Both the position numbers and the translations under genes were made by a program. Positions 3,413-36,320 of a stretch of DNA of 36,320 bases are shown here, piece after piece. Source of the DNA: an uncultured Eisenbergiella sp. (GTDB lineage Bacteria > Bacillota > Clostridia > Lachnospirales > Lachnospiraceae); NCBI GenBank assembly GCA_947598825.1, contig CANQFM010000031.1:1-36320 (forward strand). Reading direction: 5' to 3'. Below the pieces are notes generated by a model. It ran no database searches. It saw only the letters and a program-made list of their open reading frames with translations, and was not told the origin of the DNA. How positions within the stretch are numbered: the stretch's first letter is position 1; each line of letters opens with the position of its first letter.

Positions 3413-3501
3413 ATATATATGCTTTTCTGACGACAGCATAAAAGCTTAAACCTGCGGCATGTTTTCATGCCCTGAATATATAATTGCAGGAGGAACACCC
3501 C

Positions 3502-12500: not shown

Positions 12501-15500
12501 TGGCGGCATGACCTTTACAAACGGCACCGCTTCCTTTTCTTTAAGCGACGGCGAGCAAAAACTGGCGAAAGGACTGCCCGCCGGGACGAAATATACCGTA
12601 ACCGAAACGAATGCGGCAGAAAAAAATTACGCGTCCAACAGCGTCAATTCCAGCGGCACGATCCCGTTTAACGACACGGCCAGGGCGACCTTTACCAACC
12701 GCTACCGGACAGGAAATCTGACCGTTCATAAGACCGTTGTCGGAAACGATCCCAATTCACTCAGAAGCTTCCGCTTCACTGTGACTTTGGATAACGGAAC
12801 CGCCGATAAGATCAGCGGCACTTACGGACAAATGACCTTTGAAAAAGGCAAGGCGGAGTTTGAGCTGCAACACGGGCAAAGCATAACAGCCGCCAATCTG
12901 CCTGCGGGGACGACCTATCAAGTAATTGAAGAAAGTGCTTCCGGCTATACGTCTGAGGCTACCGGCGACAGCGGACAGATCGGGGATCAAAGAACCGCTA
13001 CCGCAGAATTTACCAATACTTACCATGCGGGCAGCCTGTCCGTTACGAAAATCCTCACCGCAGGCGGCAATACGCAGCGGCTGTTTGACATTCATGTGGA
13101 ACTGAGCGATAAGCATATCAACGGTACCTATGGCGATATGCGCTTTGTAAACGGCGTGGCCTCCTTCCAGCTTCTTGGCGTAGACGACAACGGAGAAGGC
13201 GCCAACATCAAGACCGCCACCGGCCTGCCTGCGGGCATAACCTACGAGGTCGCGGAAACGCAGCCCGACGGCTATCGCGTCAGCTACACAGGCTGTACCG
13301 GCATGATCCAGGAGGGAACCACAGCAAACGCTACGATCACCAATACCTATGACGGCGGCTCCCTCAAGATCAGCAAGGCCGTCCGCGGCGACGGCGCCGA
13401 TCCGGAGAAGCCCTTCCGCTTTACTGTGACCCTTTCCGATACCAGCATCCAGGGGCCTAGAGGCACGGATGCGGACGGAAATCTCCTGCGATTTACCAAC
13501 GGAAGTGCCAGCCTGACCTTAAAAGACGGTCAGCATGTGGAGATTCCGGGGCTTCCTGCGGGGGCAACCTATACCGTCACGGAAGAAGAGGCCGGCGAAG
13601 GCGGCTACATCACTACCAGCACCGGCGCTTCCGGCACGATTCCTCATGGCGGCACCGCAGAAGCGGCCTTTACCAATACCTACCGCCCCGGCAGCCTCAC
13701 CGTCACAAAAACCGTGGTGGGCGCGCCCGCAGACCAGCAAGGTCGGATCTTTACGTTTACCGTGACCTATCAAGATACGACAGGGAAAACGATCACCGGG
13801 AAATACGGCGAAATGGACTTTACAGACAGCAAAGCCACCTTTACCTTAAAGGACGGCGAAAGCATCACAGCCGATGATCTTCCTACCGGAAGTTATAAAG
13901 TCGAGGAAAAGGCTGACGGCGAATATGCGACTACCTCCACCGGCTCTTCCGGTACGATCACTAAAGCAGTCACCTCCGCTACCGCCGCCTTTACCAATAC
14001 CTATAAGACCGGAGAACTGACCGTCAAAAAAACCGTTACCGGCGAAGGCGGCAGCATAACCAAACGTTTTCCTTTTACCGTTACCCTGGAGGGCGACGCC
14101 GGGAAGGCGATCAACGGCGACTTCGGACAGATGCATTTTAAAGACGGCGTCGCAACGTTTGCTTTAAGACACGGGGAAAGCCAAAAAGCGACCGGTCTGC
14201 CCGACGGGATTTCCTATACCGTAACCGAAGATGAGGCGGATCAGAACGGCTATGTTACTACGACCACAGGCGACAGTGGGAAGATCACCTATGGCGCTCC
14301 CGCTGCGGCAAACTTTATCAACGACTTCCGCCGCGGCAATCTAACCGTCACAAAGATCCTTTCCGAGGGCGGCAATATCTGGCGGGACTTCCGATTCAAT
14401 GTGGATCTGCAGGACGAGAACATCAACGGAAGCTATGGCGATCTGGATTTTACCGCGGGTCAGGCCTTCTTCACCTTAAAGGGCGGAGAAAGCAAAACAG
14501 CCCAGGGACTCCCGGCGGGGACCTCCTATTCTGTCACCGAAATGTGGGCGGACGGCTATACCGCGGAGCCGAATCACTGTAAAGGCACGATCCCCGACGG
14601 CGGCACGGCCGAAGCGTCCATCACCAACTTTTACCGCGCAGGATCCCTGACCGTGACCAAAAAAATTGAAGGCGAAGGCGCAGATCCCGAAAAGCAGTTC
14701 CACTTTACAGTGCATTTAAGCGACTCCGGGGTCAACGGCCCAAGAGGGAAGGACGCAGAAGGCCAACAGATCCAGTTTGAAAACGGCGATGCGGATTTCA
14801 CCTTAAAGGGCGGCGATTCTATAACTATCCCAGGACTCCCTGCCGAAGCGGATTATAACGTTACGGAAAGTGAGGAAAACGCGGAAGGCTATGTCACCAC
14901 CACTACAGGACGCGAAGGTACGATCCCGCTTCAGGATACTGTAGAAGCGGTCTTTACCAACACCTACCGCCCCGGCAGCCTGACTGTTTCAAAAACCGTG
15001 GTGGGCGCGCCCGAAACCGAGAAAGATCAGGCCTTTGAGTTTACCGTAACCTATCAAGATACAGCAGGAAAAGCGATCACCGGAAAATACGGCGACATGG
15101 ACTTTAAAGACGGCACGGCTACCTTTACCTTGAAAAACGGGGAAAGCCGGATCGCGGATACGCTGCCTCTCGGAAAATATGAAGTGACAGAAACGCCTGC
15201 AAAGGGGTATGCTGTTACCAGCACCAACGCTTCCGGCTCCATTACAAAAGAGCATCCCTCTGCCGCCGCAGACTTTACCAACACCTTTGAAACCGGCGCC
15301 CTGCATATTTCCATGACAGTCGAGGGACGAGGAGCGGAAAAAGACAGGGAATTCCATTTCACAGTAACCTTAAGCGATACCGGCATTAACGGGCCTATGG
15401 GACAATTTGCTTCCGGAGAAAGTCAATTAAGGGCGGCAAGGGCAGAGAACGGTTCCGATGCCCAGCTCAACTTTACAAACGGCGTCGCCAAATTTACCTT

Positions 15501-16113
15501 AAAACACGGGCAAAGCGTCCTCATCCCAGGACTGCCGGCAGGCACAGATTATACCGTAACGGAAAACGATGCGGACCAGTACGGCTACCGCACAAGAAGC
15601 GAAGGCGAGACAGGGAGCATCCTTGCAAACGATACCGTATATGCGGTCTTTGTCAATATCAAAGATATCGAGGAGGAAGAATCCGGTACACAACCCGGCA
15701 CCGAGACGGAACCTTCCAGCGAAGATCCCGGCCCTGGCACAGAATCCGAACCTTCCGGCAGCGACCCCGGCACACAGTCCGGTCCTTCCGGGGACAACTC
15801 CGGCTCCGGCTCCAATCCTCCTTCAAGCGGCGATTCCGGATCCGGTTCCTCAACCGAACCGTCGACAGAGCCTCCGGCAGCCAGTGAAGCGCCTGCTTCA
15901 AGCGGCACGAAAACGCTGCAGCCATTGCCGGATCTTACCCTGGCGCTGACCCCGCCGATAAACGACGCGGGCGAGGCCAACGATGCCGACACGGAAGGCG
16001 CCAACGTACCTACCGGCGACGAAGCCGATCCATTCCTTTGGATGGCGCTTCTTGGCCTGTCCCTGCTGGGGCTGGCGGCGCCGTGGGCCATGCGCAGGAA
16101 ACGGCGTGGATGA
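3502..16113 (+). CDS. Giant wall-anchored protein with 26 Cna-B-like domains (4203 aa)
   Basis: A secreted, sortase-type surface protein, probably an adhesin or stalk. In order: signal peptide (1 to ~44, cleavage near VYA/AE); Ser/Thr/Glu/Pro stalk with a TE repeat (~46-213); an unrecognised domain (~215-405); two copies of a ~365-residue unit with FAGW...LYAVW (Listeria/Bacteroides-repeat-like) motifs (~406-1136); a Spy0128/FctA-like domain (~1137-1266); 26 Cna-B/DUF7601-type domains of ~107 residues (1267-4054); a Ser/Pro/Gly/Glu stalk; and NVPTGD, a hydrophobic helix and RRKRRG. Each domain has LxVxK near its start, YTVTE in the middle and FTNT at the end, the Lys/Glu/Asn set of isopeptide-forming Cna-B folds. 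The last lacks the Lys. The ATG at 3502 has AGGAGG eight bases upstream; a TTG at 3484 precedes that site and is rejected. The ligand is unknown and no sortase gene is in the window. Confidence 0.9.
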   Translation: MKRKGNDRIGKRILALTMAFAMLLSLDGFTGLTSITGPNPPVYAAEIDSAGSDPAKSGETTPAPASTTSEVSENQEETPPLAASQPSDSPESSETPEGSGSLESSETPEGSDTVESSSPAESSETGSSETPSTEYTDATQPATETETAFLTAPTVSETETVETSSEPEEPTKETETMTETPSATEVETETTVETETETETETETETETETETETLLEKPYRLMLANGDNGPKLLLAVKLQNGQYTLEVTYSGTYDLVGTDRGTGIVLERYSDDSNSSNFQQMTWDNKADISNYQISSTSFRILRDKDKKTPEPLSSNQTLSIPFSLAKIADLSSYSFRFHISIDDESGITYNEQPIPTLSGTEVKFEYSNGTITPASYTVDLMSGTVSSNGDSTGETNPDTPTGAYTLIYHLNAPDSSGETTTEGVDIYTVSQDSPDFILKSVGKTHKTDSNETIFPTNDKADSLKQGQYKDDHNVTYFFAGWDPSPSSFSSYDKIKYPISDIGNNKDNYRGFQPDTQIKLSAGTTDLYAVWMPESKAGLFGYVMSVNGASFNPSDQLLGDNGTTEQKQAQKYIVYDGGHGKGESDLFTISSDTPKYEPYQFIAWFNKSPSIDQDYIVRPSGQVQYNGEHSIYSLDAVWGSLTQGHDESHKFDSQPHAITFEPETAGSYVSHPQVEFYAGSYTSNQTQQQAFDSIFNSSTVSYEYTVTKDEDPNPVKTLVTQNVNDVPSFTDVGVYHYELNAYLNVPAQYTRNAEATSRIPIGNTKATLTITDEAVLVYHTNLPNNDDKEFRDNNPTKSGSEYTYNVQQLENVFEEKDFNNNSINRRSGHITIGNTTYYFAGWSKEKTIQGNYREIGYPVSVFKLGDDNTVRLLKDGLTLSTTNQVENLYAVWLTSPAMFGYTMTISTGDFKNSTTTGGKTLGDNGLTENGAKKYVVLDDRYNFNDDKDKHPITVTPEIPTDTSTGYTFLAWYNKNYTKGDKNTGGNDNNLNNPFTFPGGQVYFGNTNTVFSLDAVWGKLEAQNDRVPYDGEKHGLPDADLLFKGGKDQADLEKALNAGVTATYSVTVKKGDEQIGSPITGTLDSFNTLPLPAQCTDVGTYTYDISVTFTDANLLSGESPKPDTVTLTTTATLIIDPVLELSVAKELVGRDWKTDDAFTFQLTSPNGNASLSEPKTVEITREDQTESFGYIAYQGNAANDGSYTLRVSETPGSETGMTYADPQTITVAVKGNASGPYTLSGDGIKKDSANPNIYKKTVTFTNTSVPGNLTVTKTVDGKDADQKKEFSFTVTLDDTSINKTYGGMTFANGVASFKLAHGQSATATGLPAGIKYTVAETTEDPNYTVSSENEEGTIQSGETVTASFTNTLKTGNLTVTKEVSEGGDPNKAFRFTVTLDKTLSGAYGNMTFTNGTASFTLANGQSVTAEGLPVGTSYTVKEDAYTSYTSSLPAEGQTGTIQAGETAQVNVTNTWHTGNLIVTKKVSPGGNIYKEFTIYVNLDDKNITGTYGGMEFSNGLAILGLADGESATAKDLPAGLRYTVSEEPATGYQVTYSNNATGTIPADGSAAQVTVTNTYKGGTLKVTKTVVDAPPSDEGKEFTFKVKLNDETVHGPRGSVSFERGVATFTLKNGASIEIPGLPAGATYTVTEEDAGSSGYVTSSSGSTGSIPLNDTVVAAFTNTYRPGNLEIHKEVAGKGADPQKEFTFTVTLDGHPECNDQHGQLKFENGEATFTLKHGESITATELPAGGYTVTETSDDDYVTTVNGSQANSFTCSLSDGSHSATVNFVNRYKTGDLSISKTVSGTGFDPTRDFQFTVTLGDKTINGTYGDLDFTNGTATFTLHHGETKTAQELPNNTTYTVTETDANQHGYQIKEASKTGTIRYGATATVSFVNEYHTGGLTVEKVLTPGGNTTRDFNFTVTLTNEPLTGTYGDMKFENGVAKFTRRGGQSFTATGLPAGTGYTVTETGSGEYQVSYNNQTGTIPDGGTVTATVTNHYPAGSLTVSKTVVGAGGDLDKEFHFTVTLSGTGADIHGPRGSVSFDNGTTSFALKSGESKTIPGLPAHAHYTVTEAEANQGCYTTTSVGESGSIPDGGVASADFTNTYTTGNLSVKKAITGDSASRTRQFSFKVTLDSPISGDFGQMHFTDGVASFTLSDGQTISASGLPARTKYTVTETDGNQDHYVTAALEKTGTIPANSTAEVSFTNRYQSGGLIVRKSVSGSGANRSRDFTFTVTLDNGDPTHPINGLFGNMNFIDGTATFTLHDGQNAAATGLPAGTKYTVSEKPVSGYTTVFSDSASGTIPDQNTAVVNVTNTYHAGGLSVTKILTEGGNTQRRFDIHVELSDKSINGDYGEMHFANGAASFQLLGVDDDEEGANSKTATGLPAGITYEVTETEVNGYTASYTDCTGTIRDGETVSATITNTYDAGELTVSKTVADAPSSDTDRAFHFTVTLNDTTVYGPRGDASFTGGKTSFSLKNGESITIPGLPAGATYTVAEEEAGEGGYITTSTDASGTIPHNGTAEATFTNTYRPGSLTVTKTVVGEPADQQDRAFTFTVTYKDEAGKAITGKYGDMDFTNGEATFTLQNGESATAEKLPTGNYEVKETSDNKYVTTSTGASGTITTAGASATAAFTNTYKTGELTVKKTVTGEGGSKTRLFSFTVTLEGAAGEAINGSYGGMTFENGVARFTLKHGESKRANGLPDGISYLVTEDEADQNSYVTTATGDSGVITYGVPAEASFTNDFRRGDLTVTKILAAGGNTQWDFSFNVDLQDAAINGIYGEMEFTEGQAFFTLKGGESKTAKGLPAGTSYLVTEMRADGYTAKQENCEGTIPDGGVAEAVITNTYPAGTLTVTKNVEGAGADPEKQFHFTVRLSDSGVNGPRGTDTDGTLLSFTDGVAHFTLKSGKTATLQGLPAGASYTVTEEEADQGSYVTTAQNTSGVIEEDQTKEAVFTNTFTTGDLVVSKTVTGNGADKTLPFDFTVTVDNINSSSPINGTYGGMTFTNGTASFSLSDGEQKLAKGLPAGTKYTVTETNAAEKNYASNSVNSSGTIPFNDTARATFTNRYRTGNLTVHKTVVGNDPNSLRSFRFTVTLDNGTADKISGTYGQMTFEKGKAEFELQHGQSITAANLPAGTTYQVIEESASGYTSEATGDSGQIGDQRTATAEFTNTYHAGSLSVTKILTAGGNTQRLFDIHVELSDKHINGTYGDMRFVNGVASFQLLGVDDNGEGANIKTATGLPAGITYEVAETQPDGYRVSYTGCTGMIQEGTTANATITNTYDGGSLKISKAVRGDGADPEKPFRFTVTLSDTSIQGPRGTDADGNLLRFTNGSASLTLKDGQHVEIPGLPAGATYTVTEEEAGEGGYITTSTGASGTIPHGGTAEAAFTNTYRPGSLTVTKTVVGAPADQQGRIFTFTVTYQDTTGKTITGKYGEMDFTDSKATFTLKDGESITADDLPTGSYKVEEKADGEYATTSTGSSGTITKAVTSATAAFTNTYKTGELTVKKTVTGEGGSITKRFPFTVTLEGDAGKAINGDFGQMHFKDGVATFALRHGESQKATGLPDGISYTVTEDEADQNGYVTTTTGDSGKITYGAPAAANFINDFRRGNLTVTKILSEGGNIWRDFRFNVDLQDENINGSYGDLDFTAGQAFFTLKGGESKTAQGLPAGTSYSVTEMWADGYTAEPNHCKGTIPDGGTAEASITNFYRAGSLTVTKKIEGEGADPEKQFHFTVHLSDSGVNGPRGKDAEGQQIQFENGDADFTLKGGDSITIPGLPAEADYNVTESEENAEGYVTTTTGREGTIPLQDTVEAVFTNTYRPGSLTVSKTVVGAPETEKDQAFEFTVTYQDTAGKAITGKYGDMDFKDGTATFTLKNGESRIADTLPLGKYEVTETPAKGYAVTSTNASGSITKEHPSAAADFTNTFETGALHISMTVEGRGAEKDREFHFTVTLSDTGINGPMGQFASGESQLRAARAENGSDAQLNFTNGVAKFTLKHGQSVLIPGLPAGTDYTVTENDADQYGYRTRSEGETGSILANDTVYAVFVNIKDIEEEESGTQPGTETEPSSEDPGPGTESEPSGSDPGTQSGPSGDNSGSGSNPPSSGDSGSGSSTEPSTEPPAASEAPASSGTKTLQPLPDLTLALTPPINDAGEANDADTEGANVPTGDEADPFLWMALLGLSLLGLAAPWAMRRKRRG
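4018..4140 (+). repeat. Thr-Glu coding microrepeat in the N-terminal stalk
   Basis: Near-perfect runs of ACGGAAAC / ACGGAGAC hexamer-type units encode alternating Thr-Glu ((TE)n, residues ~173-213). The array is prone to slippage in steps that keep the frame. It probably forms an extended, possibly O-glycosylated spacer after the signal peptide. Confidence 0.75.
4717..6906 (+). repeat. Twofold internal duplication in the N-terminal region
   Basis: Two consecutive ~365-residue units (about 4717-5825 and 5826-6906) share the same succession. Each has a YHxN...YFFAGW/YYFAGW...LYAVW segment, then FGYxM...LGDNG...AWxNK...LDAVWG, then a beta domain with DVGxYxY and a closing LTITD/LIIDP. Identity between copies is moderate, so the duplication is old. 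Confidence 0.65.
7300..15663 (+). repeat. 26 tandem Cna-B-like domains with a four-domain higher-order period
   Basis: Each unit begins G-x-L-x-V-x-K and ends x-F-T-N-T-Y. Units fall into four types that cycle. One type contains GGN near its start (GGN codons at 7954, 9226, 10489, 11779, 13063 and 14368, about 421-435 residues apart). The next always contains GPRG and IPGLPA-like motifs (domains 4, 8, 12, 16, 20, 24). The array is therefore six four-domain blocks plus two final domains, the last also of the GPRG (here GPMG) type. Confidence 0.85.
10459..15000 (+). repeat. Recent eight-domain duplication inside the array
   Basis: Domains 11-16 and 19-24 are pairwise much more alike than other same-type domains. 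Domains 11 and 19 share a unique LLGVDD insertion. DNA around 11011 and 13600 is nearly identical for over 100 bases (offset 2589). The DNA offset is ~2.57-2.59 kb, i.e. eight domains. Confidence 0.75.
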
Positions 16114-26213: not shown

Positions 26214-28781
26214 TTATTTGTTCCGGCCGCAACAGTTCTTATATTTCTTGCCGCTGCCGCAGGGACAGGGATCGTTGGGATAAACCTTCATCTTTTCCCG
26301 CTTTACGGGCTTCTTCGGGCCGGAATCGTCCTTGTTGGTGCCCGTCACCTTGGCCACCTGCTCCCGCTCCACCTTCTGCTCGATACGGATATGGCAGAGT
26401 ACGCGGACCGTATCCTCCTTAATGCTTTCGGTCATGTTGTCAAACATCTCATAACCGCTCATCTTATATTCTACCAGCGGATCCCGCTGTCCATAGGCCT
26501 GCAGGCCGATCCCCTGGCGAAGCTGCTCCATATCGTCGATATGGGTCATCCATTTGCGGTCGATGACCTTTAGCAGAATAACGCGCTCCGCCTCCCGGAT
26601 CAGCTCTGAATTCGGGAACTCTGCCTCTTTTGCCTCGTAAAACTTTACCGCTTCTTCCTTCAACTGCTGCTTTAAGCCGTTGCGCTTCGGGTTCGCCACC
26701 CGTTCGCGGGTGACCGGTTCCAGCGGAATGATCGGCAAAAGCAGGGAATTGAGTTCGGCGAAATTCCAATCTTCGATGCCAGCGTCCTCGCCGATCACCA
26801 TGTCCACCGTATTATCCACGATATCCGTCAGCATCTTGTAAATGGAATCGCGCATGCTCTCGCCGTCCAGCACCCGGCGGCGCTCCGCATAAATGATCTC
26901 GCGCTGTTCGTTCATCACCTGGTCGTATTCCAGCAGGTTCTTACGGATGCCGAAGTTATTGCCTTCAATCTTCTTCTGGGCGTTCTCGATGGCCTTGTTC
27001 AGCATCTTATGCTCGATCTCCTGCCCTTCGGGGATCCCCAGGGCGTTAAACATGGAGATCATCTTCTCGGAGCCGAACAGCCGCATCAGATCGTCCTCCA
27101 GGGAAATATAAAATTTGGATTCCCCGGGATCTCCCTGACGGCCGGAACGGCCGCGCAACTGGTTGTCGATACGGCGGGACTCATGGCGCTCGGTGCCGAT
27201 GATCTTTAAGCCGCCGGCGGCCTTGGCCTCTTCGTCCAGCTTAATATCCGTACCACGACCGGCCATGTTGGTAGCGATGGTCACGGCGCCGTGAATACCG
27301 GCGTCCGCCACGATCTCCGCTTCCAGTTCATGGAACTTGGCGTTTAACACCTTATGCTGGATCCCTTCCCGGCGCAGCATACCGGAAAGCTCTTCGGAGG
27401 CCTCGATCGTAATAGTGCCGACCAGGACGGGCTGCCCTTTTGCGTGGGCCTCTTTCACCGCCTCCACAATGGCGTGGAGCTTTTCCCGCCGGGTCTTATA
27501 TACCGCGTCATGGTGATCGATACGGATCACCGGACGGTTGGTAGGGATCTCCACTACGTCCATGCCGTAGATATCCCTGAACTCCTTTTCCTCCGTCAGC
27601 GCCGTACCGGTCATGCCGGCCTTTTTCTCAAATTTATTAAAGAAATTCTGGAAGGTGATGGTCGCCAGCGTCTTGCTCTCCCGCTTCACCTTCACATGCT
27701 CCTTGGCCTCGATGGCCTGATGCAGACCGTCGGAATAGCGGCGTCCCGGCATGATACGGCCGGTAAACTCATCCACGATAAGCACCTGATCGTCCTTGAC
27801 CACATAATCCTTATCGCGGTGCATCAGGTTATGGGCACGCAGCGCCAGGATGATATTGTTCTGGATCTCCAGATTGTCCGAATCCGCCAGATTGTCGATG
27901 CCGAAGAACTGCTCCACCTTAGTGATGCCCTCGGCGGTCAGGTTGACCACCTTGTCCTTCTCGTTGACGATGAAGTCCCCCGTTTCCTCCTGTTCGATGC
28001 CCATGATGGCGTCCATCTTGGACAGATCCTCCATATCCTTGCCCCGCACCATCCGCCGCGCCAGGATATCGCAGGCTTCATACAGGCTGGTGGACTTGCC
28101 GCTCTGTCCGGAAATGATCAGCGGCGTGCGCGCTTCGTCGATCAGCACCGAGTCCACCTCATCGACGATGGCGTAATGCAGGCCCCGCTGCACCAGTTGT
28201 TCCTTATAGATGGCCATATTGTCCCGCAGATAGTCAAAACCCAGTTCATTGTTGGTCACATAGGTGATATCGCAGGCATAGGCTTCCCGCCGTTCCTCGG
28301 GCTTCATGGTGTTTAGGATAACGCCCACCTTCAGGCCCAGAAACTCGTGCACCGCCCCCATCCACTGGGCGTCGCGGGCCGCCAGATAGTCGTTGACCGT
28401 GACTATATGCACGCCCTTGCCTTCCAGGGCATTCAGATAAGCGGGCAGGGTCGCCACCAGCGTTTTGCCTTCGCCGGTCTTCATCTCCGCGATACGGCCC
28501 TGATGCAGGATCACGCCGCCGATGAGCTGCACCCGAAAATGCTCCATGTTCAGTACGCGCCTGGCCGCTTCCCTGACCGCCGCATAGGCCTCCGGCATCA
28601 GGTCGTCCAGCGTCTCCGTGCCTGCCAGCCGTTCTTTAAATTCCCTCGTCTTATCTCGAAGCTGTTCGTCTGTAAGCTCCATCATGGCGGGACGGAGCTG
28701 TTCGATCTTCTCGACGATCGGCTCGATCCGCTTTAATTCCCTTTCACTGTGGGTTCCAAAAACCTTCTCGAAAATATTCAT
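26214..28781 (-). CDS. secA: Preprotein translocase ATPase SecA
   Basis: An 855-residue SecA, the motor that drives unfolded preproteins through SecYEG. Walker A is MKTGEGKT (100-107), the DEAD-type box is DEVD (207-210), and motif VI-like [13 protein letters not shown] is present. The preprotein cross-linking and helical scaffold regions are complete. The C-terminus has the zinc-binding SEC-C motif [13 protein letters not shown] after a Lys-rich linker. The ATG at 28781 gives the universal MNIFEKVFG start with GGGAG upstream; an open extension to 28826 is not homologous. It is presumably the export route for the large secreted proteins encoded nearby. Confidence 0.97.
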
Positions 28782-28831
28782 GTACTCTGTTCTCCCATTG
28801 CATTTTCGATCCACATACAAATCCAACGTAT

Positions 28832-28931: not shown

Positions 28932-29873
28932 CTAAAATTCTACCGACCATTCTTTTTCTTTGTTCAACGGCTTTACCGGGTAATTCTCATAGGTTTTCCA
29001 GTAATAATCCTGCTTCTTGGCGTCCTCCATGTCCGGATCGAAAATATACCATTCTTTCCCGATCAGGATCTCCGTCCATCCGTGAGGCGTCAACCCTCCC
29101 CGCGCAGCGCGGATCTGCCCCGTGGCAACTCTCGCCTGATACCCCAGGCCCTTGGCCAGGCTGGCAAAAGCGGCCGCATACCTGAAACAGTTCCCTTCCC
29201 CCGTGGTCAGAAGCTGCAGCGCATAGCCTTCGGTCCAGTCTCCCTCCGGCGTTTCGTAAGTCCGTTTATAGCTGGTATGATCCAGGACATACTGATAGGC
29301 GGCCCTCAGCTTTTCTTCCGCTGACATATCGTTTGTCACGATCGAGGCCAAAATCTGCGTCACGCACTGTTTTAAGGGGGTCGCGATCTCCTCCTTCGCT
29401 TTTCTCTCCGCCTCCTGCCTGGCCTCCTCTGCCCCTTCCTCTTTTGCCGCGATCAGGGCCTTTTGCGCCGCTTTCTCTGCCTCTTCCTTTTCCTGTTTCA
29501 GCTTACGCACTTCCTGGATCCTCTGCTCCAGCACGACGGCTCCGGTCCTCTCCAGACCTGTCTGCAGGATATTGTCGGCTTTCTCAAACTCCGCTTCATC
29601 GAGACAGGACTGGGTCTGAGCCAGATAGGCCAGTACCATCGCCTGCCCCACGGCTCCGTCATCCGGCTCCAGGCGCAGGGCGGCCTCGTATTCTGCGATC
29701 GCTTGTTCATACTCTGCTCCCGCCAGGCAGCGCTCCGCCGCCGCCATATGTTCCCGGTATTCCTGCGCTTTTCTGGCCTGTGCGGCGCCAAAGCCAACGG
29801 CTGCGGCCATCGCCAGAACGGCGGCGGTCGCCAGGAAGATCCAGATATCCTTCTTTTGCATGATCGCTTTCAT
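28932..29873 (-). CDS. Transglutaminase-like protein with TPR/coiled-coil N-terminus
   Basis: A 313-residue extracytoplasmic protein. It has one N-terminal helix (~10-32), a TPR-like segment (AERCLAGAEYEQAIAEYEAA, then LRLEPDDGAVG), a charged Lys/Glu/Ala coiled coil (~115-165) and a C-terminal transglutaminase/protease-like core. The catalytic triad is C229 (GEGNCFRYA), H264 (TPHGWTEI) and D279 (IFDPDME). The core is closely similar to that of the gene at 34773-35657, with identical spacing of the triad, but the N-terminal halves are unrelated. Such cores can act as peptidases, transglutaminases or amide-bond transferases; which one applies is unknown. Last gene of the operon, 39 bases after the VanX-like gene. 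GAGGAAG precedes the ATG. Confidence 0.85.
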   Translation of the reverse strand: MKAIMQKKDIWIFLATAAVLAMAAAVGFGAAQARKAQEYREHMAAAERCLAGAEYEQAIAEYEAALRLEPDDGAVGQAMVLAYLAQTQSCLDEAEFEKADNILQTGLERTGAVVLEQRIQEVRKLKQEKEEAEKAAQKALIAAKEEGAEEARQEAERKAKEEIATPLKQCVTQILASIVTNDMSAEEKLRAAYQYVLDHTSYKRTYETPEGDWTEGYALQLLTTGEGNCFRYAAAFASLAKGLGYQARVATGQIRAARGGLTPHGWTEILIGKEWYIFDPDMEDAKKQDYYWKTYENYPVKPLNKEKEWSVEF

Positions 29874-29912
29874 TCTCGTTCTTCCTCTGAAAAAAACTTT
29901 TCCCTGCTTTAT

Positions 29913-31910
29913 TCACTCTGCCTCATAAGCAAAGCTTTCCTGGCAGTATCCGTCCTCGTCAAAATGATATTCCCTGCCCTCTATTTCCTCCGCCGTACCG
30001 GTATAAAAGCTTCCGTCCGCTTTCCGGTAGCGCCAGCCTGTATCGTCCTTTTTCCAGCCCTCCGGGGAAACCCCTTTTCTCATATAGGTATACAGATCGA
30101 GTTCCGCCCGGATATCGTCGTCCTGGAAGTGCCACCATTCGGAAAACAGGTCGCTGAAACCCGCCGACATCATGTAACGCGCCAGCAGATCCGCTTCTTC
30201 ATTGTTCTGGGCTGTGGAAGAATACCAGCTCAGATCGTGCATTTCCGTCTGCATGGAAAGGGTCTGTCCGCTTTCCAGCTCCTCCAGGGTCAGATCCACC
30301 GCGATGCCCCGGTTATGTGCCGAAACAGAACTGGCCAGGAAAGAGGAAAGCCCGTACCGGCCCCCCGTCATGACGCTGCCGTAGGTCAGCCCGATCCGAC
30401 TGGCATCCCCGTTTCCCAGATTCTCGGCCTCGATCCGTTTGCCCATCGCAGCGCTCATGGTGGAATACAGATACCGGGTCGCCTCGTTGGGGCGGAAGGC
30501 GTCATAGATCCGCAGCCGGTAGCCGTCCCGCCGAACCATATTGGCCGCCTGCAAAAGACGGTTTGCCGTAGGGTATAAAAGAGGCACCAGATATCTTTCC
30601 TCCCCCGTGTAGACATCCTCATAGCCCGGGATCACCGTATTGGAGATCTTCGGGACGTCATATCCGTGAACCCGGAAAATGGAGGAATCGCTGTTTTTGA
30701 TCTCATAGGCGCACAGGTCCCCCAGATACTCCGCCAGATCGATCATACAATACCTTCCGTCCACCCAGCCTGCCGTATCCTGATACCGGACGAGGAAATA
30801 ATCCCCCTCCTGCCTCAGGACGCAAAGGGCCGTTCCCGCCGGAATGCTCCCCAGCCGTCCGCTGCCGTCTGCATTTTCCCAAAACGGCTGGTCCAGCAGG
30901 GGCCATACGGTACAATACAGCGGCGACACCTCCACGCGGAACGTGACCTCATAGGGATCGGCAGTAAAATCCTCCGTTTCCTTCTGCTGTTTCGTATCGT
31001 AAGCGACGACCCGGAAACGCACCTGGCTTCCGGAAGGCAGGGTCCCCACCTCATATGCCGTCTCATTCCCTTCCAGCACTGCGCGCGTCAGCCAGGCGTT
31101 TTCCTCGGACGACCACTGCTGTACTTCGCAGTACTTTCCTTCCACGCTTTCCCAGTCCAGCGCGTACCGCCGGTCCCCCAGCCCCTCATAGGTCAGATTA
31201 AGCTGCCCCCCGAACAGCTCCCTGTGGGATATGGACACCGGTTCCGCATAGGCGCTGTAGGAAACATATCCGTTTCCCTGCACCATCGTCCTGACGGTGA
31301 ATTGGATCGTATCCCGATCCCGAAGCACGTTAAAATCCGCCCCTGCGGACAAACAGATCAGGGAACCGTCGGATACGCCGATGCTCTGCCATTCCCCATT
31401 TTCATCCTGAATATAGACTTCGTAATCCTTTCCGTCCGTTCCCGTACAGGCCAGAAAGATTCGTTTGTCCACGCTGTCCACATCGCACGTCAGATCCGGC
31501 TTTTGCAGCGAGGCCGGTTCGATCAGAAATTCCGAAACGTCCCCCTCTTTCTCCCGGGTCATATGCAGCAGATTGACCGTTTCCCGGATCGGCAGCAGCC
31601 GCAGGTAGATCTTCTGCCCCTCCGATACGCCCTCCAGGATCACGCTGCCCGAAGGGTATTCCCCCAGCGGCGTATATTCGGCCCCATCGAAGCTGTATGC
31701 CATACGGCATCTGGCAATGGAAAGCTGGGAAGGCCAGGAAAGGCTCAGCCGCCCTTCCTGCAGGCTGACCTGCAGCGCCCCCGCAGGAAAGACCGGTTTC
31801 GCACCTCTTGGCTGCAGCAGCACCCCTGCTCCGAAAGCGGCGGCAAAAAAAAGCCCTATTCCCAGACAGATCAGCAGGATCCGCATAAGAGCCAGAAAAA
31901 ACTTTTTCAT
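29913..31910 (-). CDS. VanX-like D,D-dipeptidase with SH3-like and wall-binding domains
   Basis: A 665-residue membrane-anchored protein. It has one helix (~5-30), beta-rich fibronectin-like segments (~40-330), an SH3-like domain (~335-395; AGTALCVLRQEGDYFLVRYQ), an M15D peptidase core (~420-610) and a choline-binding-type repeat at the end (GWKKDDTGWRYRKADGSFY). Zinc ligands and catalytic Glu are H532, D539 (SAHNRGIAVDLTL), E591 and H594 (EWWHF). This reproduces the spacing known for VanX (H116, D123, E181, H184). YDAFRP, also conserved in VanX, is present. Unlike VanX it is exported, so wall peptides, not cytoplasmic D-Ala-D-Ala, are likely substrates. ATGA overlap with the DHHW gene. Confidence 0.88.
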   Translation of the reverse strand: MKKFFLALMRILLICLGIGLFFAAAFGAGVLLQPRGAKPVFPAGALQVSLQEGRLSLSWPSQLSIARCRMAYSFDGAEYTPLGEYPSGSVILEGVSEGQKIYLRLLPIRETVNLLHMTREKEGDVSEFLIEPASLQKPDLTCDVDSVDKRIFLACTGTDGKDYEVYIQDENGEWQSIGVSDGSLICLSAGADFNVLRDRDTIQFTVRTMVQGNGYVSYSAYAEPVSISHRELFGGQLNLTYEGLGDRRYALDWESVEGKYCEVQQWSSEENAWLTRAVLEGNETAYEVGTLPSGSQVRFRVVAYDTKQQKETEDFTADPYEVTFRVEVSPLYCTVWPLLDQPFWENADGSGRLGSIPAGTALCVLRQEGDYFLVRYQDTAGWVDGRYCMIDLAEYLGDLCAYEIKNSDSSIFRVHGYDVPKISNTVIPGYEDVYTGEERYLVPLLYPTANRLLQAANMVRRDGYRLRIYDAFRPNEATRYLYSTMSAAMGKRIEAENLGNGDASRIGLTYGSVMTGGRYGLSSFLASSVSAHNRGIAVDLTLEELESGQTLSMQTEMHDLSWYSSTAQNNEEADLLARYMMSAGFSDLFSEWWHFQDDDIRAELDLYTYMRKGVSPEGWKKDDTGWRYRKADGSFYTGTAEEIEGREYHFDEDGYCQESFAYEAE

Positions 31911-33340
31911 CGGCCGCTTTCACCCGTCTTTCCTTCGTATAAGATCCGGACGTCCCCTTCTGAACCGGTCAGCACCCTTACCGCAAACTCTGTCCCCGCC
32001 GCCTGATCCATTGGCAGATACAGAGTGAAGCCGTAATCGTTTTTCTCTCCCTTTTCCGTAAGCTGCACGCAAAACGCCTCAAAAACCCGGGTCTGCGCCC
32101 CGTCCGTGATCTCCAGAAGGATCGGGCTGTCCTCCCGCATATACCGAGGGTCAGCCACGCCCGAAAATCTCCAGTAGCTTCCCTCCTTTTGCAGATGCAG
32201 CGTCGTATCGCTTTCCGTTTTTTCACCGGATCCCGGGAGTTTTCTTTGGGGAGCGCTCATCAGAGGCGGAACGCTTCCCAGCGTCGGCAGATGCCGTTCC
32301 ACCTTTTCCAGTATCACGACATCCGATTCCGCCGTGATCAGATCCTCCATGCGATAAGGGACAAATTTGGAAAAAGTCGCCTGTTTAAATTCCCGGGCAA
32401 AAAAGGGCAGCAGGGAATTGCCGAAGGAATCCCGGTACATCAGCAGGTTCTGGTTCCCTGTCTCAGATGCGGTCTGAATATAGTCGTCCTCCACATCGTC
32501 CCCCTGCAGATACGTCCATCCGCCTTCCGGGGCATAAAGGGTCTCCTCCTCCGGCTGCGCCCCCACCGGATAAACCATCAGGTTCAGATCTCCCAGATAT
32601 TCCCGGGTTTGCCCTAAAGGAGAAGCAGCATAACCGGGAGCCTTGCGTCCGCAGGCCTGTAAAAGCGCGTCGGTGACCAGCGCCGCGCCCTTCTGGTTCC
32701 AGTGGGAATCCCGCGCATAGTACAGCGTTTCCTTCTGCCCCTCAAAAAGGGCGTACAGATCCACATAGGATACCCCTTCCTGTTCCAGCCAGGGCACAAG
32801 GCGCTCTGCGTCGCTTTCTTCCGCGATCCGGTACTGATACCGGGCGGGCATATTTTCCCCGTACAGGGAATTTTTATTGGGCGCTATGGTAAACACAAAG
32901 GTCTGGCCCAGGCTCCGGGCGTACTCCTGCATCAGCGCCAGGTTATGCGCGATGTTAAACAGCATCCTGTCGGACAGGCTGTGGTTGTGCTGAAAATCGT
33001 CCAGCGTCGCCTCATAATACAGCCAGCCGTTTTTCCCGACGATCACGCTGTCCACGGGGGACGTCCCAAAGACCGCGCTTCTGATCCTGGCGTCTGCCGC
33101 CACAAGTTCCTGCCGGAACGCAAAGTGATCCGTAAAATACTCTCCCGCCTCCTGCAAAAAATCCATGTTGACTCCGTCCTCCCCCGTCAGGGCAGGCCAT
33201 TTGGCAAGTTCCGTATTTTCCGTCGTCCGCATGGTGGGCCAAAAGAGCATTCCCGCAAAAGGGATCAGGCAGATCCCCAGCACCAGCGCACAGTACAGGA
33301 TAGAAAGAAGCTTTCCGCTGCAAAACCGATTTTTCCCCAC
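31907..33340 (-). CDS. DHHW/AlgX-like protein, likely O-acetyltransferase partner
   Basis: A 477-residue protein with one N-terminal helix (~12-33) and an extracytoplasmic SGNH-type domain of the DHHW family. The triad can be read as D211-x-H213 (ARDSHWNQKGA) and S305 (MYRDSFGNS). The His-to-Ser spacing of 92 residues is close to that of AlgX (D174, H176, S269). A beta-rich C-terminal domain (~385-475) could bind carbohydrate. In AlgI/AlgX, PatA/PatB and DltB/DltD systems such proteins pass an acyl group from the membrane MBOAT enzyme to the polymer. It starts at GTG 33340 with AAGGAG eight bases upstream, 12 bases after the MBOAT gene. Confidence 0.85.
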   Translation of the reverse strand: MGKNRFCSGKLLSILYCALVLGICLIPFAGMLFWPTMRTTENTELAKWPALTGEDGVNMDFLQEAGEYFTDHFAFRQELVAADARIRSAVFGTSPVDSVIVGKNGWLYYEATLDDFQHNHSLSDRMLFNIAHNLALMQEYARSLGQTFVFTIAPNKNSLYGENMPARYQYRIAEESDAERLVPWLEQEGVSYVDLYALFEGQKETLYYARDSHWNQKGAALVTDALLQACGRKAPGYAASPLGQTREYLGDLNLMVYPVGAQPEEETLYAPEGGWTYLQGDDVEDDYIQTASETGNQNLLMYRDSFGNSLLPFFAREFKQATFSKFVPYRMEDLITAESDVVILEKVERHLPTLGSVPPLMSAPQRKLPGSGEKTESDTTLHLQKEGSYWRFSGVADPRYMREDSPILLEITDGAQTRVFEAFCVQLTEKGEKNDYGFTLYLPMDQAAGTEFAVRVLTGSEGDVRILYEGKTGESGR

Positions 33341-33352
33341 CTTGTTTGCTCC

Positions 33353-34762
33353 TTAAAATCTGAAATAAATGAATGGATTATAAGTCCCGCCCGACAGGCT
33401 GAACAGACACAGCAGCAAAAGCAGGACGCTGGCCGCGTAGGAAAAAGGCCGCCAAAAGCTGCGCAGCCGGGCGTTGCTTCGGCAAAGCACCCACTCTGTG
33501 ACCGGCAGACAGCAGACCGCGGCAGCCGCCAGCGCTGCCCAGAACAGACCGTTTAACGGGGCCATGGCCGCCGCCGTTACCGCAGCGCCGCCTTTTGCGC
33601 CCGCAAACATCGCCGCCAGCATCCTTCCCGCCTGTCCCAAATCGTCGGAACGAAACAGGACAAAGCCCACGCAGACCACCAGCAGCACATAAAGATGCCC
33701 GATCCACGCTGTCTTTTTCTTTTCCCCTTTTTTGCCAAAAACGGTTTCCAACGCCAAAAACAGGCCGTGGAACAGCCCCCAGAGGACAAACGTCCAGTTC
33801 GCGCCATGCCAGAGCCCCGTGCAGAAAAATACGATCAGGCGGTTGATCCACGTCCGGGTCTTCCCTTTCCGGTTCCCGCCCAACGGAATATAAAGATATT
33901 CCCGAAACCAGTTTGTCAGGGAAATATGCCATCTTCTCCAGAAGTCCTGTATGCTCGACGCCAGATAGGGATGGTCAAAATTCTCCCGGATCGTAAAACC
34001 GAACATTTTCCCCAGGCCGATGGCCATATCGCTGTATCCGCTGAAATCGAAATAGATCTGCATCATATAGGCGACCGCGCCCGTCCAGGCCGCCGCCATC
34101 CCAATTTCCGCCGCCGGAAGGGCGTACACATAATCCGTCGCCACGCCCATGGTATTGGAGATCAGCACCTTTTTGGACAGCCCCAGGATAAAACGGCGCA
34201 GCCCCTGGGCGGTCTTTGACGCGGACTGCTGCCTGTCTCCAAGCTGCTGTGCAATATCCGTGTATTTTACGATCGGGCCGGCGATAAGCTGCGGGAAAAA
34301 AGAAATATAGAGCAGCACCTTCCCAAAGCTTTTTTCCGCCTCCGCCTTGCCCCGGTACACGTCGATCACATAGGAAAGGGCCTGAAAGGTGAAGAAAGAA
34401 ATGCCGATGGGCAGACGGATCTGTACGGCCGGAAAGGCCCGCCCCGTCAGAAAGCCCAGCGTTTCCAGAAGCATCCCCGTATATTTGTAAAAGAAAAGCA
34501 TCCCGAGGTTCAGCAACACCCCCGCCGCCAGCAGCGCTTTTTTGAACTTCTCGGATCTCCCTGCAAAGGCCCGGGCCAGCAGATAATTCCAGAAAACGCA
34601 AACGATCATCAAAAAAACGTATACCGGTTCCCCGTATGCATAAAACAGCAGGCTCAGCGCCACCAGCAACGCGTTTTTTGCCCGCAGGGAAGGCATCAGG
34701 CAATAGAGCAGATAACCTGCCGGAAGGAAAACGCATAGAAAAGGCATTGAACTGAAAGCCAT
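33353..34762 (-). CDS. MBOAT-family membrane O-acyltransferase (AlgI-like)
   Basis: A 469-residue polytopic membrane enzyme of the AlgI/DltB/PatA group. Conserved elements include LPIGISFFTFQALSYVIDVY, FFPQLIAGPI, FDFSGYSDMAIGLGKMFG, FWRRWHISLTNWFREYLYIP (H279) and the catalytic-His segment TGLWHGANWTFVLWG (H319). It would move an acyl group, usually acetyl, from a cytoplasmic donor through the membrane to its extracytoplasmic partner encoded next (DHHW protein). GAGGAG six bases before the ATG. The acceptor polymer cannot be deduced. Neither dltA/dltC nor alginate genes are present, so neither D-alanylation nor alginate acetylation is supported. Confidence 0.93.
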   Translation of the reverse strand: MAFSSMPFLCVFLPAGYLLYCLMPSLRAKNALLVALSLLFYAYGEPVYVFLMIVCVFWNYLLARAFAGRSEKFKKALLAAGVLLNLGMLFFYKYTGMLLETLGFLTGRAFPAVQIRLPIGISFFTFQALSYVIDVYRGKAEAEKSFGKVLLYISFFPQLIAGPIVKYTDIAQQLGDRQQSASKTAQGLRRFILGLSKKVLISNTMGVATDYVYALPAAEIGMAAAWTGAVAYMMQIYFDFSGYSDMAIGLGKMFGFTIRENFDHPYLASSIQDFWRRWHISLTNWFREYLYIPLGGNRKGKTRTWINRLIVFFCTGLWHGANWTFVLWGLFHGLFLALETVFGKKGEKKKTAWIGHLYVLLVVCVGFVLFRSDDLGQAGRMLAAMFAGAKGGAAVTAAAMAPLNGLFWAALAAAAVCCLPVTEWVLCRSNARLRSFWRPFSYAASVLLLLLCLFSLSGGTYNPFIYFRF

Positions 34763-34772
34763 GTTTTTCTCC

Positions 34773-35657
34773 TCAGAAGACCACAGGCCATTCCGCCTGC
34801 TTGATCAACGGTTTCACCGGGTAATTCTCATAGGTTTTCTGATAGAAATCCCATTTTTTGGCGTCCTCCATATCCGCGTCGAAAAGATACCATTCCTCCC
34901 CGATCAGGATCTCCGTCCATCCATGGGGCGTCACGCCTCCCCTGGCGGATTTGATCTGCCCTGTGGCGACCCTCGCCTCAAAACCCAGTCCTCTGGCCAG
35001 GCTGGCAAAAGCGGCCGCATACCGGAAGCAGTTCGCCTTCCCGGTGGTCAAAGCTTCCAGGGCATAGGCCCCCGTCCAGTCCCCCGCAGGCGTTTCATAG
35101 GTACGCTTATAGCTGGTGTGATCCAGAACATACTGATAAGCGGCCCTCAATTTCTGCCCCGCCGTCATCTCCGGCGTCGTGACCGATGAAAGGACTTCTG
35201 TCACGCACCGCGCAAGGGGCGAGGCTTCCTGCGGCAGGATCTCGACCAGTTTCCCGTCGCTGCCGAACCGGTACTGCCCCACCTGGGCGTCCTTCACCAT
35301 GACCCCGTCGTTTCCAAAGAAGTACAGATCCTCTCCCACGGGAAGCCATCCGGCAAAGAGATTCCCTTCCGGCAGGAGATAATATACGGCCCCGTCCACC
35401 TCGGTCAGACCCACCTGGACAAAACCGCTGCCGTCCAGGTGCCACTTCAGATCCCCCAACTGGATCCAGCAGTCCTTCGCCCAGGTCCCGTCCATGTTTT
35501 TCCACAGTACACCGTTTTCCGCCTGGACAAAACCATAGGGGATTTCCTGCGCGGGCGGCTCCAATGACGCTTCCTGCGCCTCTGCCTTACTGCCGTTCAT
35601 CCAGAAGCATCCGGCGGCGACGAGCAGGCCGGCCGCCCAAAACAAACTCCTTTTCAT
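34773..35657 (-). CDS. Secreted transglutaminase-like protein with wall-binding repeats
   Basis: A 294-residue protein. A signal peptide (1 to ~27, ending SKAEA) precedes about four choline-binding-type repeats (~40-140; GFVQAENGVLWKNMDG, LKWHLDGSGFVQVG, YFFGNDGVMVKDAQVG). The C-terminal transglutaminase-like core has C210 (KANCFRYA), H245 (TPHGWTEI) and D260 (LFDADME). The core matches the gene at 28932-29873 almost residue for residue, while the N-terminal half is different. The repeats should hold it in the wall. I chose the ATG at 35657 (GGAGGAG eight bases upstream), five bases after the upstream dipeptidase gene; an open extension to 35678 overlaps that gene. It ends 10 bases before the MBOAT start. 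Confidence 0.87.
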   Translation of the reverse strand: MKRSLFWAAGLLVAAGCFWMNGSKAEAQEASLEPPAQEIPYGFVQAENGVLWKNMDGTWAKDCWIQLGDLKWHLDGSGFVQVGLTEVDGAVYYLLPEGNLFAGWLPVGEDLYFFGNDGVMVKDAQVGQYRFGSDGKLVEILPQEASPLARCVTEVLSSVTTPEMTAGQKLRAAYQYVLDHTSYKRTYETPAGDWTGAYALEALTTGKANCFRYAAAFASLARGLGFEARVATGQIKSARGGVTPHGWTEILIGEEWYLFDADMEDAKKWDFYQKTYENYPVKPLIKQAEWPVVF

Positions 35658-35662
35658 CCGCT

Positions 35663-36320
35663 TTACTCCTCCGTACAATATCCTTCTTCGTCAAACGTAT
35701 ATTCGCGTCCGTCGATGGTCAGCGTGCCGCCCGCAAAATACCCTCCGTCCTCCTGCCGGTATTTCCATCCCCGATCGTCTTTCTTCCATCCGGTGATCTC
35801 CAGCCCGTCGGCAAGATAGGTGTTCAGCCCTATGGCATTTCGCGTTTCATCATCCTGGAAGTGCCACCATTCCGAGGTCAGATCGTTGAATCCGATCCCT
35901 TTCATATACTTCGCCAGCAGATCCGCATTTTCGTTGTTGTAAGGCAGAGCGGAATGCCAACTGAGGTCGTGCATATCCGTCTGCATCGTCAGCCCTTCCC
36001 CGGTATCCAGCCGTTCCAGCGTCAGATCCAGCGCGATCCCCCGGTTATGGGCGGAGGTCTGCGCGGCCAAAAAGCTTCCAAGCCGGTATTTGCCGTCCGT
36101 CATGGCCTGATAGAAGGTCTGGGTATTCCCCTGCAGGTATGCCAGAAACGCCGCCAGTTCTTCCGGCGCAAGGCTCTTTAAAGAAGAAAGCTCCTGCAGC
36201 GTCATCACGCTCAGCTTTCCCAAAAGCTCCGGCGTCAGCCCATAATTCACGGCGATCGCGACCAACTGATCCGGCGTCATGCCATAGGCGGCCGCGATCT
36301 GTTCCGGCGTCCGCTGTTCC
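35663..36320 (-). CDS. VanX-like D,D-dipeptidase, 5' end beyond the window
   Basis: The frame is open to the window end, so this is the C-terminal ~218 residues of a longer protein. It shares with the gene at 29913-31910 the zinc segment TSAHNRGIALDLTLE, the MHDLSWHS and NNENADLLAKYM segments, SEWWHFQDDE and the closing repeat GWKKDDRGWKYRQEDGGYF. Ahead of the zinc motif lies a helical stretch not found in the paralogue: TPEQIAAAYGMTPDQLVAIA, then TPELLGKLSVMTLQELSSL and LAPEELAAFLAYLQ. It is an insertion in or just before the catalytic domain. First visible gene of the operon; the promoter lies outside the window. No internal start codon is needed. Confidence 0.85.
   Translation of the reverse strand, partial: EQRTPEQIAAAYGMTPDQLVAIAVNYGLTPELLGKLSVMTLQELSSLKSLAPEELAAFLAYLQGNTQTFYQAMTDGKYRLGSFLAAQTSAHNRGIALDLTLERLDTGEGLTMQTDMHDLSWHSALPYNNENADLLAKYMKGIGFNDLTSEWWHFQDDETRNAIGLNTYLADGLEITGWKKDDRGWKYRQEDGGYFAGGTLTIDGREYTFDEEGYCTEE

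What the first reader, a model, noticed from the sequence alone, without database searches (positions are those of the whole stretch)
28932..36320. Six-gene envelope operon: duplicated VanX-like/transglutaminase pair flanking an MBOAT-DHHW acylation module
Gene order is dipeptidase-1, transglutaminase-1, MBOAT, DHHW/AlgX-like, dipeptidase-2, transglutaminase-2, with gaps of -4 to 39 bases. Both dipeptidases keep the VanX metal and catalytic residues; both transglutaminase-like cores keep C-H-D with identical spacing (35 and 15). The acylation pair keeps H319 and a D-x-H...S triad. Accessory domains differ between copies (wall-binding repeats, SH3-like, TPR/coiled coil). I know of no described system with this combination. 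A plausible reading is coordinated cleavage or cross-linking of stem peptides together with O-acylation of a surface polymer.
Basis: partly seen in the sequence, partly recalled or inferred. Interest (0 to 1): 0.82.

Follow-up and report, generated by a model that had tools for sequence, protein, structure and literature searches.

The report
Conserved gut-bacterial wall-modifying gene module
Gut bacteria carry a recurring gene set that looks built to remodel the cell wall: enzymes predicted to cut or link wall peptides, a machine that adds acyl groups outside the membrane, and a small lipoprotein with a conserved cysteine; what it acts on has not been tested.

Summary
The six genes are real (minus strand, window 28932-36320). 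The first, M15_1, is cut by the contig end; its N-terminal half lies on another contig of the same genome. The named catalytic residues are present.

The combination is not strain-specific. Of 79 loci with relatives of M15_2, 64 have a transglutaminase-fold (TG) gene in the same block and 55 an acyltransferase as well, in six arrangements. The acyltransferase is swapped: MBOAT+AlgX/DHHW-like, MBOAT+GDSL, or AT3.

It is fused to the SGNH acyltransferase in 5 loci, and one SGNH-TG fusion exists.

48 of 48 intact MBOATs carry PatA's FXYXXF acyl-shuttle motif. The same lipoprotein family also sits in Dlt-like operons (ligase, carrier and MBOAT in 23 of 40 loci sampled).

Best reading: a module joining transmembrane O-acylation to TG/VanX-fold wall tailoring. 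Substrates are unproven. Seven open-access text searches found no description of the combination.

The parts
35663..36319 (-). M15_1: C-terminal half of a VanX-fold (Peptidase_M15) zinc peptidase, with a C-terminal repeat like that of M15_2; the N-terminal half (654 aa, with FRPNEATR) is on contig C18:1-1962 of the same genome
34773..35678 (-). TG1: choline-binding-type wall repeats plus transglutaminase-fold core, C217-H252-D267
33353..34762 (-). MBOAT O-acyltransferase (DltB/PatA-like), H319
33356..33373 (-). C-terminal acyl-shuttle motif FIYFRF (FXYXXF) of the MBOAT
   Evidence: motif defined in PMC12148441 (passages read)
31907..33340 (-). AlgX/PatB1-like SGNH acyltransferase, D211-x-H213 and S305
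29913..31910 (-). M15_2: N-terminal membrane helix, FN3-like domains, SH3-like domain, VanX-fold zinc peptidase, C-terminal autolysin-type repeat
28932..29873 (-). TG2: N-terminal membrane segment, TPR/coiled-coil-like segment (weak Pfam matches), transglutaminase-fold core; no counterpart after M15_2 in L002 and L007

Best explanation
It is one version of a widespread clostridial envelope-modification module. Shown by sequence: the genes travel together, keep their active-site residues and share a recurring small Cys-motif protein. Inferred: the MBOAT takes an acyl group (most likely acetyl from acetyl-CoA, as no ligase or carrier gene is present) and loads it on the Tyr of its own C-terminal FIYFRF. 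The SGNH protein takes it onto Ser305 and passes it to a hydroxyl of a wall glycan. At the same site the VanX-fold peptidase trims D-amino-acid ends of stem peptides, and the TG-fold cysteine enzyme cuts or exchanges an amide or isopeptide bond in the same wall. The small lipoprotein, with its linker and Cys motif, holds the outside enzymes next to the acyltransferase. The two M15-TG pairs would be two copies of the tailoring arm with different anchors.
For: Linkage: 64 of 79 M15_2-relative loci have TG in the block, 55 of 79 TG plus an acyltransferase; 52 of those 55 have the small Cys-motif protein, the 3 misses being contig ends. Control in the same genomes: of 9 genomes with a divergent M15 (E above 1e-15, a cut chosen after seeing the list), 6 have TG and MBOAT within about 6 kb of it, against 0 of 16 strong VanX-type M15 genes in 14 genomes (read by eye). 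Non-homologous swap of the acyltransferase: MBOAT+AlgX, MBOAT+GDSL, AT3. Fusions: SGNH-seven wall repeats-TG in one ORF; the small protein's tip or domain fused to the SGNH protein in L026, L028, L063 and L163, L171. Co-variation TG-MBOAT r 0.95 over 40 loci, 0.90 within the AlgX type (permutation maximum 0.265). FXYXXF in 48 of 48 intact MBOATs and 13 of 13 in further loci, two of which repeat contigs of the first set. SGNH: nearest solved relative by sequence is B. cereus PatB1 (1.5e-9); MBOAT: DltB (3.5e-29). M15_2 model: VanX is the only M15 chain among the 50 fold matches listed (TMt 0.73); Arg, His, Asp, Glu, His align with VanX and are invariant in 30 aligned rows. TG Cys 69 of 69, His 69 of 69, Asp 68 of 69. 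Wall-repeat or Ig-like domains: TG1, M15_2, TGs of L023 and L054.
Against: No substrate was tested. PatB1, the nearest SGNH relative, acetylates a secondary wall polysaccharide (PMC9487903, passages), so the acceptor may not be peptidoglycan. In the AlgX type, M15-TG co-variation (0.301) does not exceed the permutation maximum (0.319), so M15 is a looser partner. TG-MBOAT pairs (same strand, within about 6 kb) without PF01427 M15 occur in 8 of 30 family genomes (by eye). None of 40 lipoprotein-family loci had M15 on the same strand. The VanX Arg is present in only 53 of 58 rows of a wider alignment. The SGNH protein lacks PatB1's block II residues in the alignment. TG-fold cores can be proteases, amidases or ligases; sequence does not decide.
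Confidence: 0.5

Rival explanations
1. The acyl acceptor is a secondary cell-wall polysaccharide or capsule (PatA1/PatB1-like), and TG and M15 open or tailor peptidoglycan to attach or expose that polymer.
For: Nearest SGNH relative by sequence is PatB1, a secondary-wall-polysaccharide acetyltransferase. L054, and by cluster L008, have an O-antigen-ligase-like gene between two such gene sets.
Against: No recurrent polysaccharide-synthesis gene stood out among the neighbour clusters that I looked at (first 45 clusters, by eye, not a systematic search). The SGNH protein's block II Asp and Arg do not align with PatB1's.
Confidence: 0.3
2. The TG-fold enzyme acts on the module's own lipoprotein: it links the Cys-bearing part to trimmed stem peptides, giving a covalent membrane-to-wall tether in the manner of Braun's lipoprotein.
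For: 52 of 55 module loci, and all those not cut by a contig end, encode one small protein with a conserved Cys motif. The type A tip occurs in 2 of 120 family genomes, once each and only at the module; the type E tip once in each of 7 type-E genomes and in 0 of 3 others. TG is the partner common to all module types.
Against: The tips have no shared Lys or Gln as a classic acceptor or donor, and no cleavage or linkage has been seen. A docking peptide explains the same facts.
Confidence: 0.12
3. The M15 proteins are VanX-type D-Ala-D-Ala dipeptidases, as in glycopeptide resistance or D-Ala salvage.
For: VanX-like fold and conserved metal and catalytic residues.
Against: M15_2 is far below NCBIfam's VanX and DdpX-type cut-offs (36.5 of 320; 65.4 of 176). 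A predicted N-terminal membrane helix and wall-type repeats suggest that it works outside the cell. A conserved MQTxMHDLS segment stands where VanX has its substrate-contacting loop (the role of that loop is recalled).
Confidence: 0.05
4. The genes are unrelated neighbours that happen to sit together.
For: TG and MBOAT genes are common in these genomes (95 and 100 matches in 23 genomes).
Against: Permuted but retained neighbourhoods in 55 of 79 loci, in Lachnospiraceae and Oscillospiraceae, plus fusions.
Confidence: 0.02

Closest known systems
PatA1/PatB1 (B. cereus secondary wall polysaccharide O-acetylation) and PatA/PatB (peptidoglycan O-acetylation)
   Same: MBOAT plus an SGNH partner; FXYXXF as in PatA; PatB1 is the nearest solved relative by sequence
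   Different: The passages read do not describe TG, M15 or a Cys-motif lipoprotein in those systems; block II residues differ
OatA-type AT3-SGNH O-acetyltransferases
   Same: AT3 membrane acyltransferase in type E modules
   Different: In type E the AT3 stands beside TG, a small Cys-tip protein and M15; my HMMs found no SGNH gene in the block
DltXABCD D-alanylation system
   Same: MBOAT close to DltB (3.5e-29); the wider family includes ligase-carrier-MBOAT-GDSL operons
   Different: No ligase or carrier in the window or in 16 kb of C18; the shuttle motif is fused to the MBOAT rather than on DltX
CcsHI (clostridial cellulose acetylation)
   Same: MBOAT/SGNH pair (named in PMC12148441, passages)
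   Different: No cellulose-synthase gene was noticed beside the window's module (not searched for specifically); TG, M15 and lipoprotein instead
ClaspCone-1 operons with SGNH and MBOAT (PMC12419801, passages)
   Same: SGNH and MBOAT genes together in an operon with an envelope protein
   Different: The word transglutaminase does not occur in the main text; the partner is a Lipocone protein
VanX and M15 peptidases
   Same: Fold and catalytic residues
   Different: Multidomain proteins with a membrane helix, below the VanX equivalog cut-off, distinct MQTxMHDLS segment
TG-fold wall or surface enzymes: PeiP pseudomurein endoisopeptidase, S. pyogenes TglA (PDB 9crn)
   Same: Fold matches of the TG1 model (E 3.2e-6 and 5.0e-6)
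   Different: Loose matches (rmsd above 7, aligned range not shown, probably the core); no paper on TglA was found in the library

Membership tests
MBOAT-SGNH polymer acyltransferases | MBOAT with catalytic His | tested here: met
   Pfam MBOAT 128.5 bits; H319 in GLWHG
MBOAT-SGNH polymer acyltransferases | C-terminal FXYXXF acyl-shuttle motif | tested here: met
   FIYFRF at the C-terminus; 48 of 48 intact relatives, 5 truncated ones set aside
MBOAT-SGNH polymer acyltransferases | adjacent SGNH protein with Asp-x-His and Ser | tested here: met
   ALGX 62.5 bits; D211, H213, S305
MBOAT-SGNH polymer acyltransferases | acylates an extracellular polymer | not testable with these tools
   needs wall chemistry
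PatB1 subfamily (DHHW) | block V TDHHW and block II DXRY with oxyanion Arg | tested here: not met
   RDSHW at block V; D357 and R359 of PatB1 align with other residues (alignment, read by hand)
Peptidase_M15 (Pfam) | score over the gathering cut-off | tested here: met
   49 and 45.2 bits against 27
VanX (NCBIfam equivalog) | score over the cut-off | tested here: not met
   36.5 and 39.2 bits against 320
VanX (NCBIfam equivalog) | Arg71, His116, Asp123, Glu181, His184 | tested here: met
   aligned in M15_2 (numbers counted by hand, roles recalled); invariant in 30 rows
Transglutaminase-like superfamily | Cys-His-Asp triad | tested here: met
   69, 69 and 68 of 69
Protein-crosslinking transglutaminase | transamidating activity | not testable with these tools
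   the fold includes proteases, amidases and ligases (general knowledge)
Dlt system | DltA ligase and DltC carrier | tested here: not met
   HMMs for the related ligase and carrier found nothing in the window or in C18:1-16000; present in related loci

The most novel reading that the evidence does not exclude
The module is a lipoprotein-to-wall ligation and acylation machine. M15 exposes an acceptor on stem peptides, the TG-fold enzyme joins the Cys-bearing part of a dedicated lipoprotein to it, and the linked acyltransferase O-acylates the same patch of wall. This would be a Gram-positive counterpart of Braun's lipoprotein linkage that uses a transglutaminase fold, with a sister form in Dlt-like operons that delivers a D-amino acid instead.
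Probability: 0.1. Interest if true: 0.92.

Novelty: new variant of a known kind. Interest (0 to 1): 0.72.

Why it matters
MBOAT-SGNH acylation is known for several wall polymers. A fixed partnership with a TG-fold enzyme, a VanX-fold peptidase and a Cys-motif lipoprotein was not found in print in the seven searches that looked for it (open-access library only, titles and abstracts of listings seen). It occurs in gut families (Lachnospiraceae, and Oscillospiraceae including Faecalibacterium), where wall acylation and stem-peptide trimming could bear on lysozyme resistance and innate sensing. It also gives TG-fold proteins, numerous in these genomes (95 matches in 23 genomes), a concrete role to test.

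Tried and rejected
Strain-specific assembly: rejected, the neighbourhood recurs. Canonical VanX: rejected by cut-off and context. Lipoprotein tip as a general sorting signal: not supported, at most one copy per genome and only at the module. M15 as the core of the unit: not supported, because TG and MBOAT co-vary more closely in the AlgX type and occur without it. Toxin-like PDB matches of TG1: in the four alignments shown they lie in the wall-binding-type repeats found in many surface proteins, so they say nothing on function. Promoter/terminator scan: uninformative. Searches for a paper on S. pyogenes TglA found none.

Limits: one search found 88 stretches encoding a relative, kept the best 80 and gave 79 loci; some share an assembly. 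Blocks use gaps of at most 2600 bases and HMMs trained on the same loci. In one search the flank test of the 12 weak M15 genomes used only 1.5 kb: among three true modules it showed TG in two and MBOAT in none, so it is weak; the lipoprotein HMM matched in L106 and L107. The 40 lipoprotein loci are all places with E at most 1e-25 except three already fetched, four further places lying inside fetched stretches: 31 with TG, 29 with an acyltransferase, 24 with both, 4 with neither (L137 and L154 near contig ends, L167, L173); one MBOAT there is in a 2991-codon frame (L158). Counts were read by eye.
Full report
OBSERVATION. The six genes are on the minus strand, 28932-36320. Pfam supports each label, with two corrections. 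The 'DHHW' protein is better called AlgX-like (62.5 bits; DHHW 25.1 against a cut-off of 25), and the 'dipeptidases' pass Pfam Peptidase_M15 but fall far below NCBIfam's VanX model. Residues and spacings are as stated. M15_1 is cut by the end of contig C31. A 654-aa frame at C18:1-1962, open at the contig end, carries the matching N-terminal half with the catalytic-Arg segment.

A MISSING GENE. Fifty-three bases before that frame on C18 lies a 176-aa lipoprotein gene (C18:2016-2546, minus) ending in RRYVEDCGMDTGYWIIYYSDGHEEYIDG. It matches no Pfam or NCBIfam family over a cut-off except the generic lipid-attachment site. It is probably the first gene of the same operon, but the contig junction is not proven.

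CONSERVATION. A scan of one genome per species with M15_2 found 88 stretches encoding a relative; the best 80 gave 79 loci, with titles mostly naming Lachnospiraceae, Oscillospiraceae or their genera, many from gut or rumen. HMMs built from these loci gave the neighbourhoods. Module loci: M15-TG-MBOAT-SGNH(AlgX) (12, three of them with an extra M15 or SGNH); MBOAT-SGNH-TG-lipoprotein-M15 (12); TG-MBOAT-SGNH-lipoprotein-M15 (4); MBOAT-SGNH-lipoprotein-TG-M15 (2); M15-TG-MBOAT-GDSL-lipoprotein (16, plus 2 cut after MBOAT); TG-small protein-AT3-M15 (7). That is 55 of 79. TG without an acyltransferase in the block: 9 (two, L008 and L054, have MBOAT-SGNH about 3.6 kb further). No TG in the block: 15 (12 M15 only, 3 lipoprotein-M15), some at contig ends. 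Contig names pair several lone M15 or TG-M15 loci with a full module in the same assembly: L009/L047, L012/L049, L013/L061, L010/L076, L078/L056, L003/L066, L004/L016, L005/L014.

CONTROL. In 120 genomes of the window's family, 23 had PF01427. Divergent M15 genes (E above 1e-15, a cut set after seeing the list; 9 genomes) had TG and MBOAT within about 6 kb in 6 genomes. The 16 strong VanX-type genes (14 genomes) had this in none (by eye). In 291 genomes of the class a profile of the module M15 matched 16. Besides the window's own, G018, G373 and G378 have M15, TG, MBOAT, SGNH and lipoprotein together; G018 is very probably the genome of L032. The other 12 had weaker, short matches; in their 1.5-kb flanks no TG, MBOAT or AT3 was detected, but the same test showed TG in only 2 of 3 true modules.

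THE SMALL PROTEIN. It was found in 52 of 55 module loci; the 3 misses (L031, L045, L066) are cut by contig ends. Type A ends in a variant of YIEDCGxD(S/T)GYW (11 of 12). Type E ends in GCIGDDGLVW or, in L021, GCIGDEGLVY (7 of 7). The globular forms share an invariant Cys and Gly: 18 of 18 in alignment A3, around SC(A/L/I)xxGxD. A lipobox was found in 19 of 21 and 19 of 19 proteins of the two globular sets and in 8 of 8 type A proteins tested (the two misses start at a contig end), but a stricter pattern gave 7 of 21, 17 of 18 and, for type E, 4 of 7, so not every one is shown to be a lipoprotein. The tip is fused to the SGNH protein in L026, L028 and L063, and the globular domain to GDSL in L163 and L171. 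The type A pattern occurs in 2 of 120 family genomes, at the module in G101 and beside M15_1 in G000. The type E pattern occurs once in each of 7 type-E genomes and in none of 3 others.

FUSION. One ORF (L094:8900-11497) joins the AlgX-like SGNH domain, seven choline-binding-type repeats and a TG core.

ACYL TRANSFER. PMC12148441 (passages read) reports that PatA loads acetyl on the Tyr of a C-terminal FXYXXF, from which PatB takes it. All 48 intact MBOATs of the loci (5 truncated ones set aside), and 13 of 13 in further loci (two repeating L032 and L038), end in this motif. In a tree of 81 MBOATs, 35 of 36 rows of AlgX-type modules with M15 fall in one set of 41 rows (support 98) with 4 TG rows lacking M15 and 2 rows without detected TG. 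It excludes the six other MBOATs of the window's genome; L030 falls outside.

THE TAILORING ARM. The M15_2 model (mean pLDDT 89.6) has an N-terminal helix, FN3-like domains, an SH3-like domain, a VanX-like domain (1r44, TMt 0.73) and a C-terminal repeat. The TG1 model (87.3) mostly matches choline-binding repeats; among the 50 matches listed are PeiP, TglA and a putative cysteine protease (rmsd about 7, aligned range not shown). Cutting versus joining is open.

WIDER FAMILY. The lipoprotein profile finds 85 of 291 class genomes at 1e-6; many of the weakest matches cover only the first 60-100 positions. In 40 loci of the strongest matches, 31 have TG, 29 an acyltransferase and 24 both; none has M15 on the same strand, two have it on the other. 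Ligase, carrier and MBOAT occur together in 23 of 40, with TG in 21; a racemase in 16. A common order is TG-(Asp/Glu racemase)-AMP ligase-carrier-MBOAT-GDSL-lipoprotein. Pfam confirms racemase and ligase in L083 and L054; the carrier label rests on its size, place and DSFD-type sequence (by eye). This looks like a Dlt-like aminoacylation operon with TG and the same lipoprotein family. The window's module would be the form without ligase and carrier (none found in the window or in C18:1-16000), probably acyl-CoA-fed, with M15 added.

CO-VARIATION. TG-MBOAT distances correlate at 0.95 over 40 loci (M15-TG 0.42, M15-MBOAT 0.49) and at 0.90 within the AlgX type, where M15-TG is 0.30, not above the permutation maximum. 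In the GDSL type all three pairs reach 0.93 or more. Shared ancestry of the genomes contributes to all of these.

CONCLUSION. The unit is real and conserved, and its chemistry is partly predictable. The acceptor polymer, the bond handled by TG and the role of the Cys motif are inferences.

Noticed in passing
window 3484-16113 (+): A 4209-aa ORF with 26 DUF7601 repeat matches, a giant repetitive protein, perhaps a surface protein.
   Followed up: partly
L083, L135, L138-L142 and similar loci: Recurrent operon TG-Asp/Glu racemase-AMP ligase-carrier-MBOAT-GDSL-lipoprotein in several clostridial families, like a Dlt system for another (perhaps D-) amino acid.
   Followed up: partly
L087:4257-5132: A Peptidase_M15_4 gene (65.6 bits) near a TG-MBOAT-GDSL-ligase cassette, as if a different M15 enzyme had been recruited.
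   Followed up: partly
L150, L160, L161, L166, L169, L170: Clusters of two to six TG genes beside GDSL and the lipoprotein with no MBOAT detected.
   Followed up: no
L003, L004 and window 26214-28826: TG-M15 pairs lie next to secA in relatives, as the end of the window's module does; the module may have grown around that pair.
   Followed up: partly
L114:2771-15927: Upstream of the lipoprotein gene on C18: three similar ~400-aa proteins with an N-terminal membrane segment and two large proteins beginning like Ser/Thr kinases (by eye).
   Followed up: no
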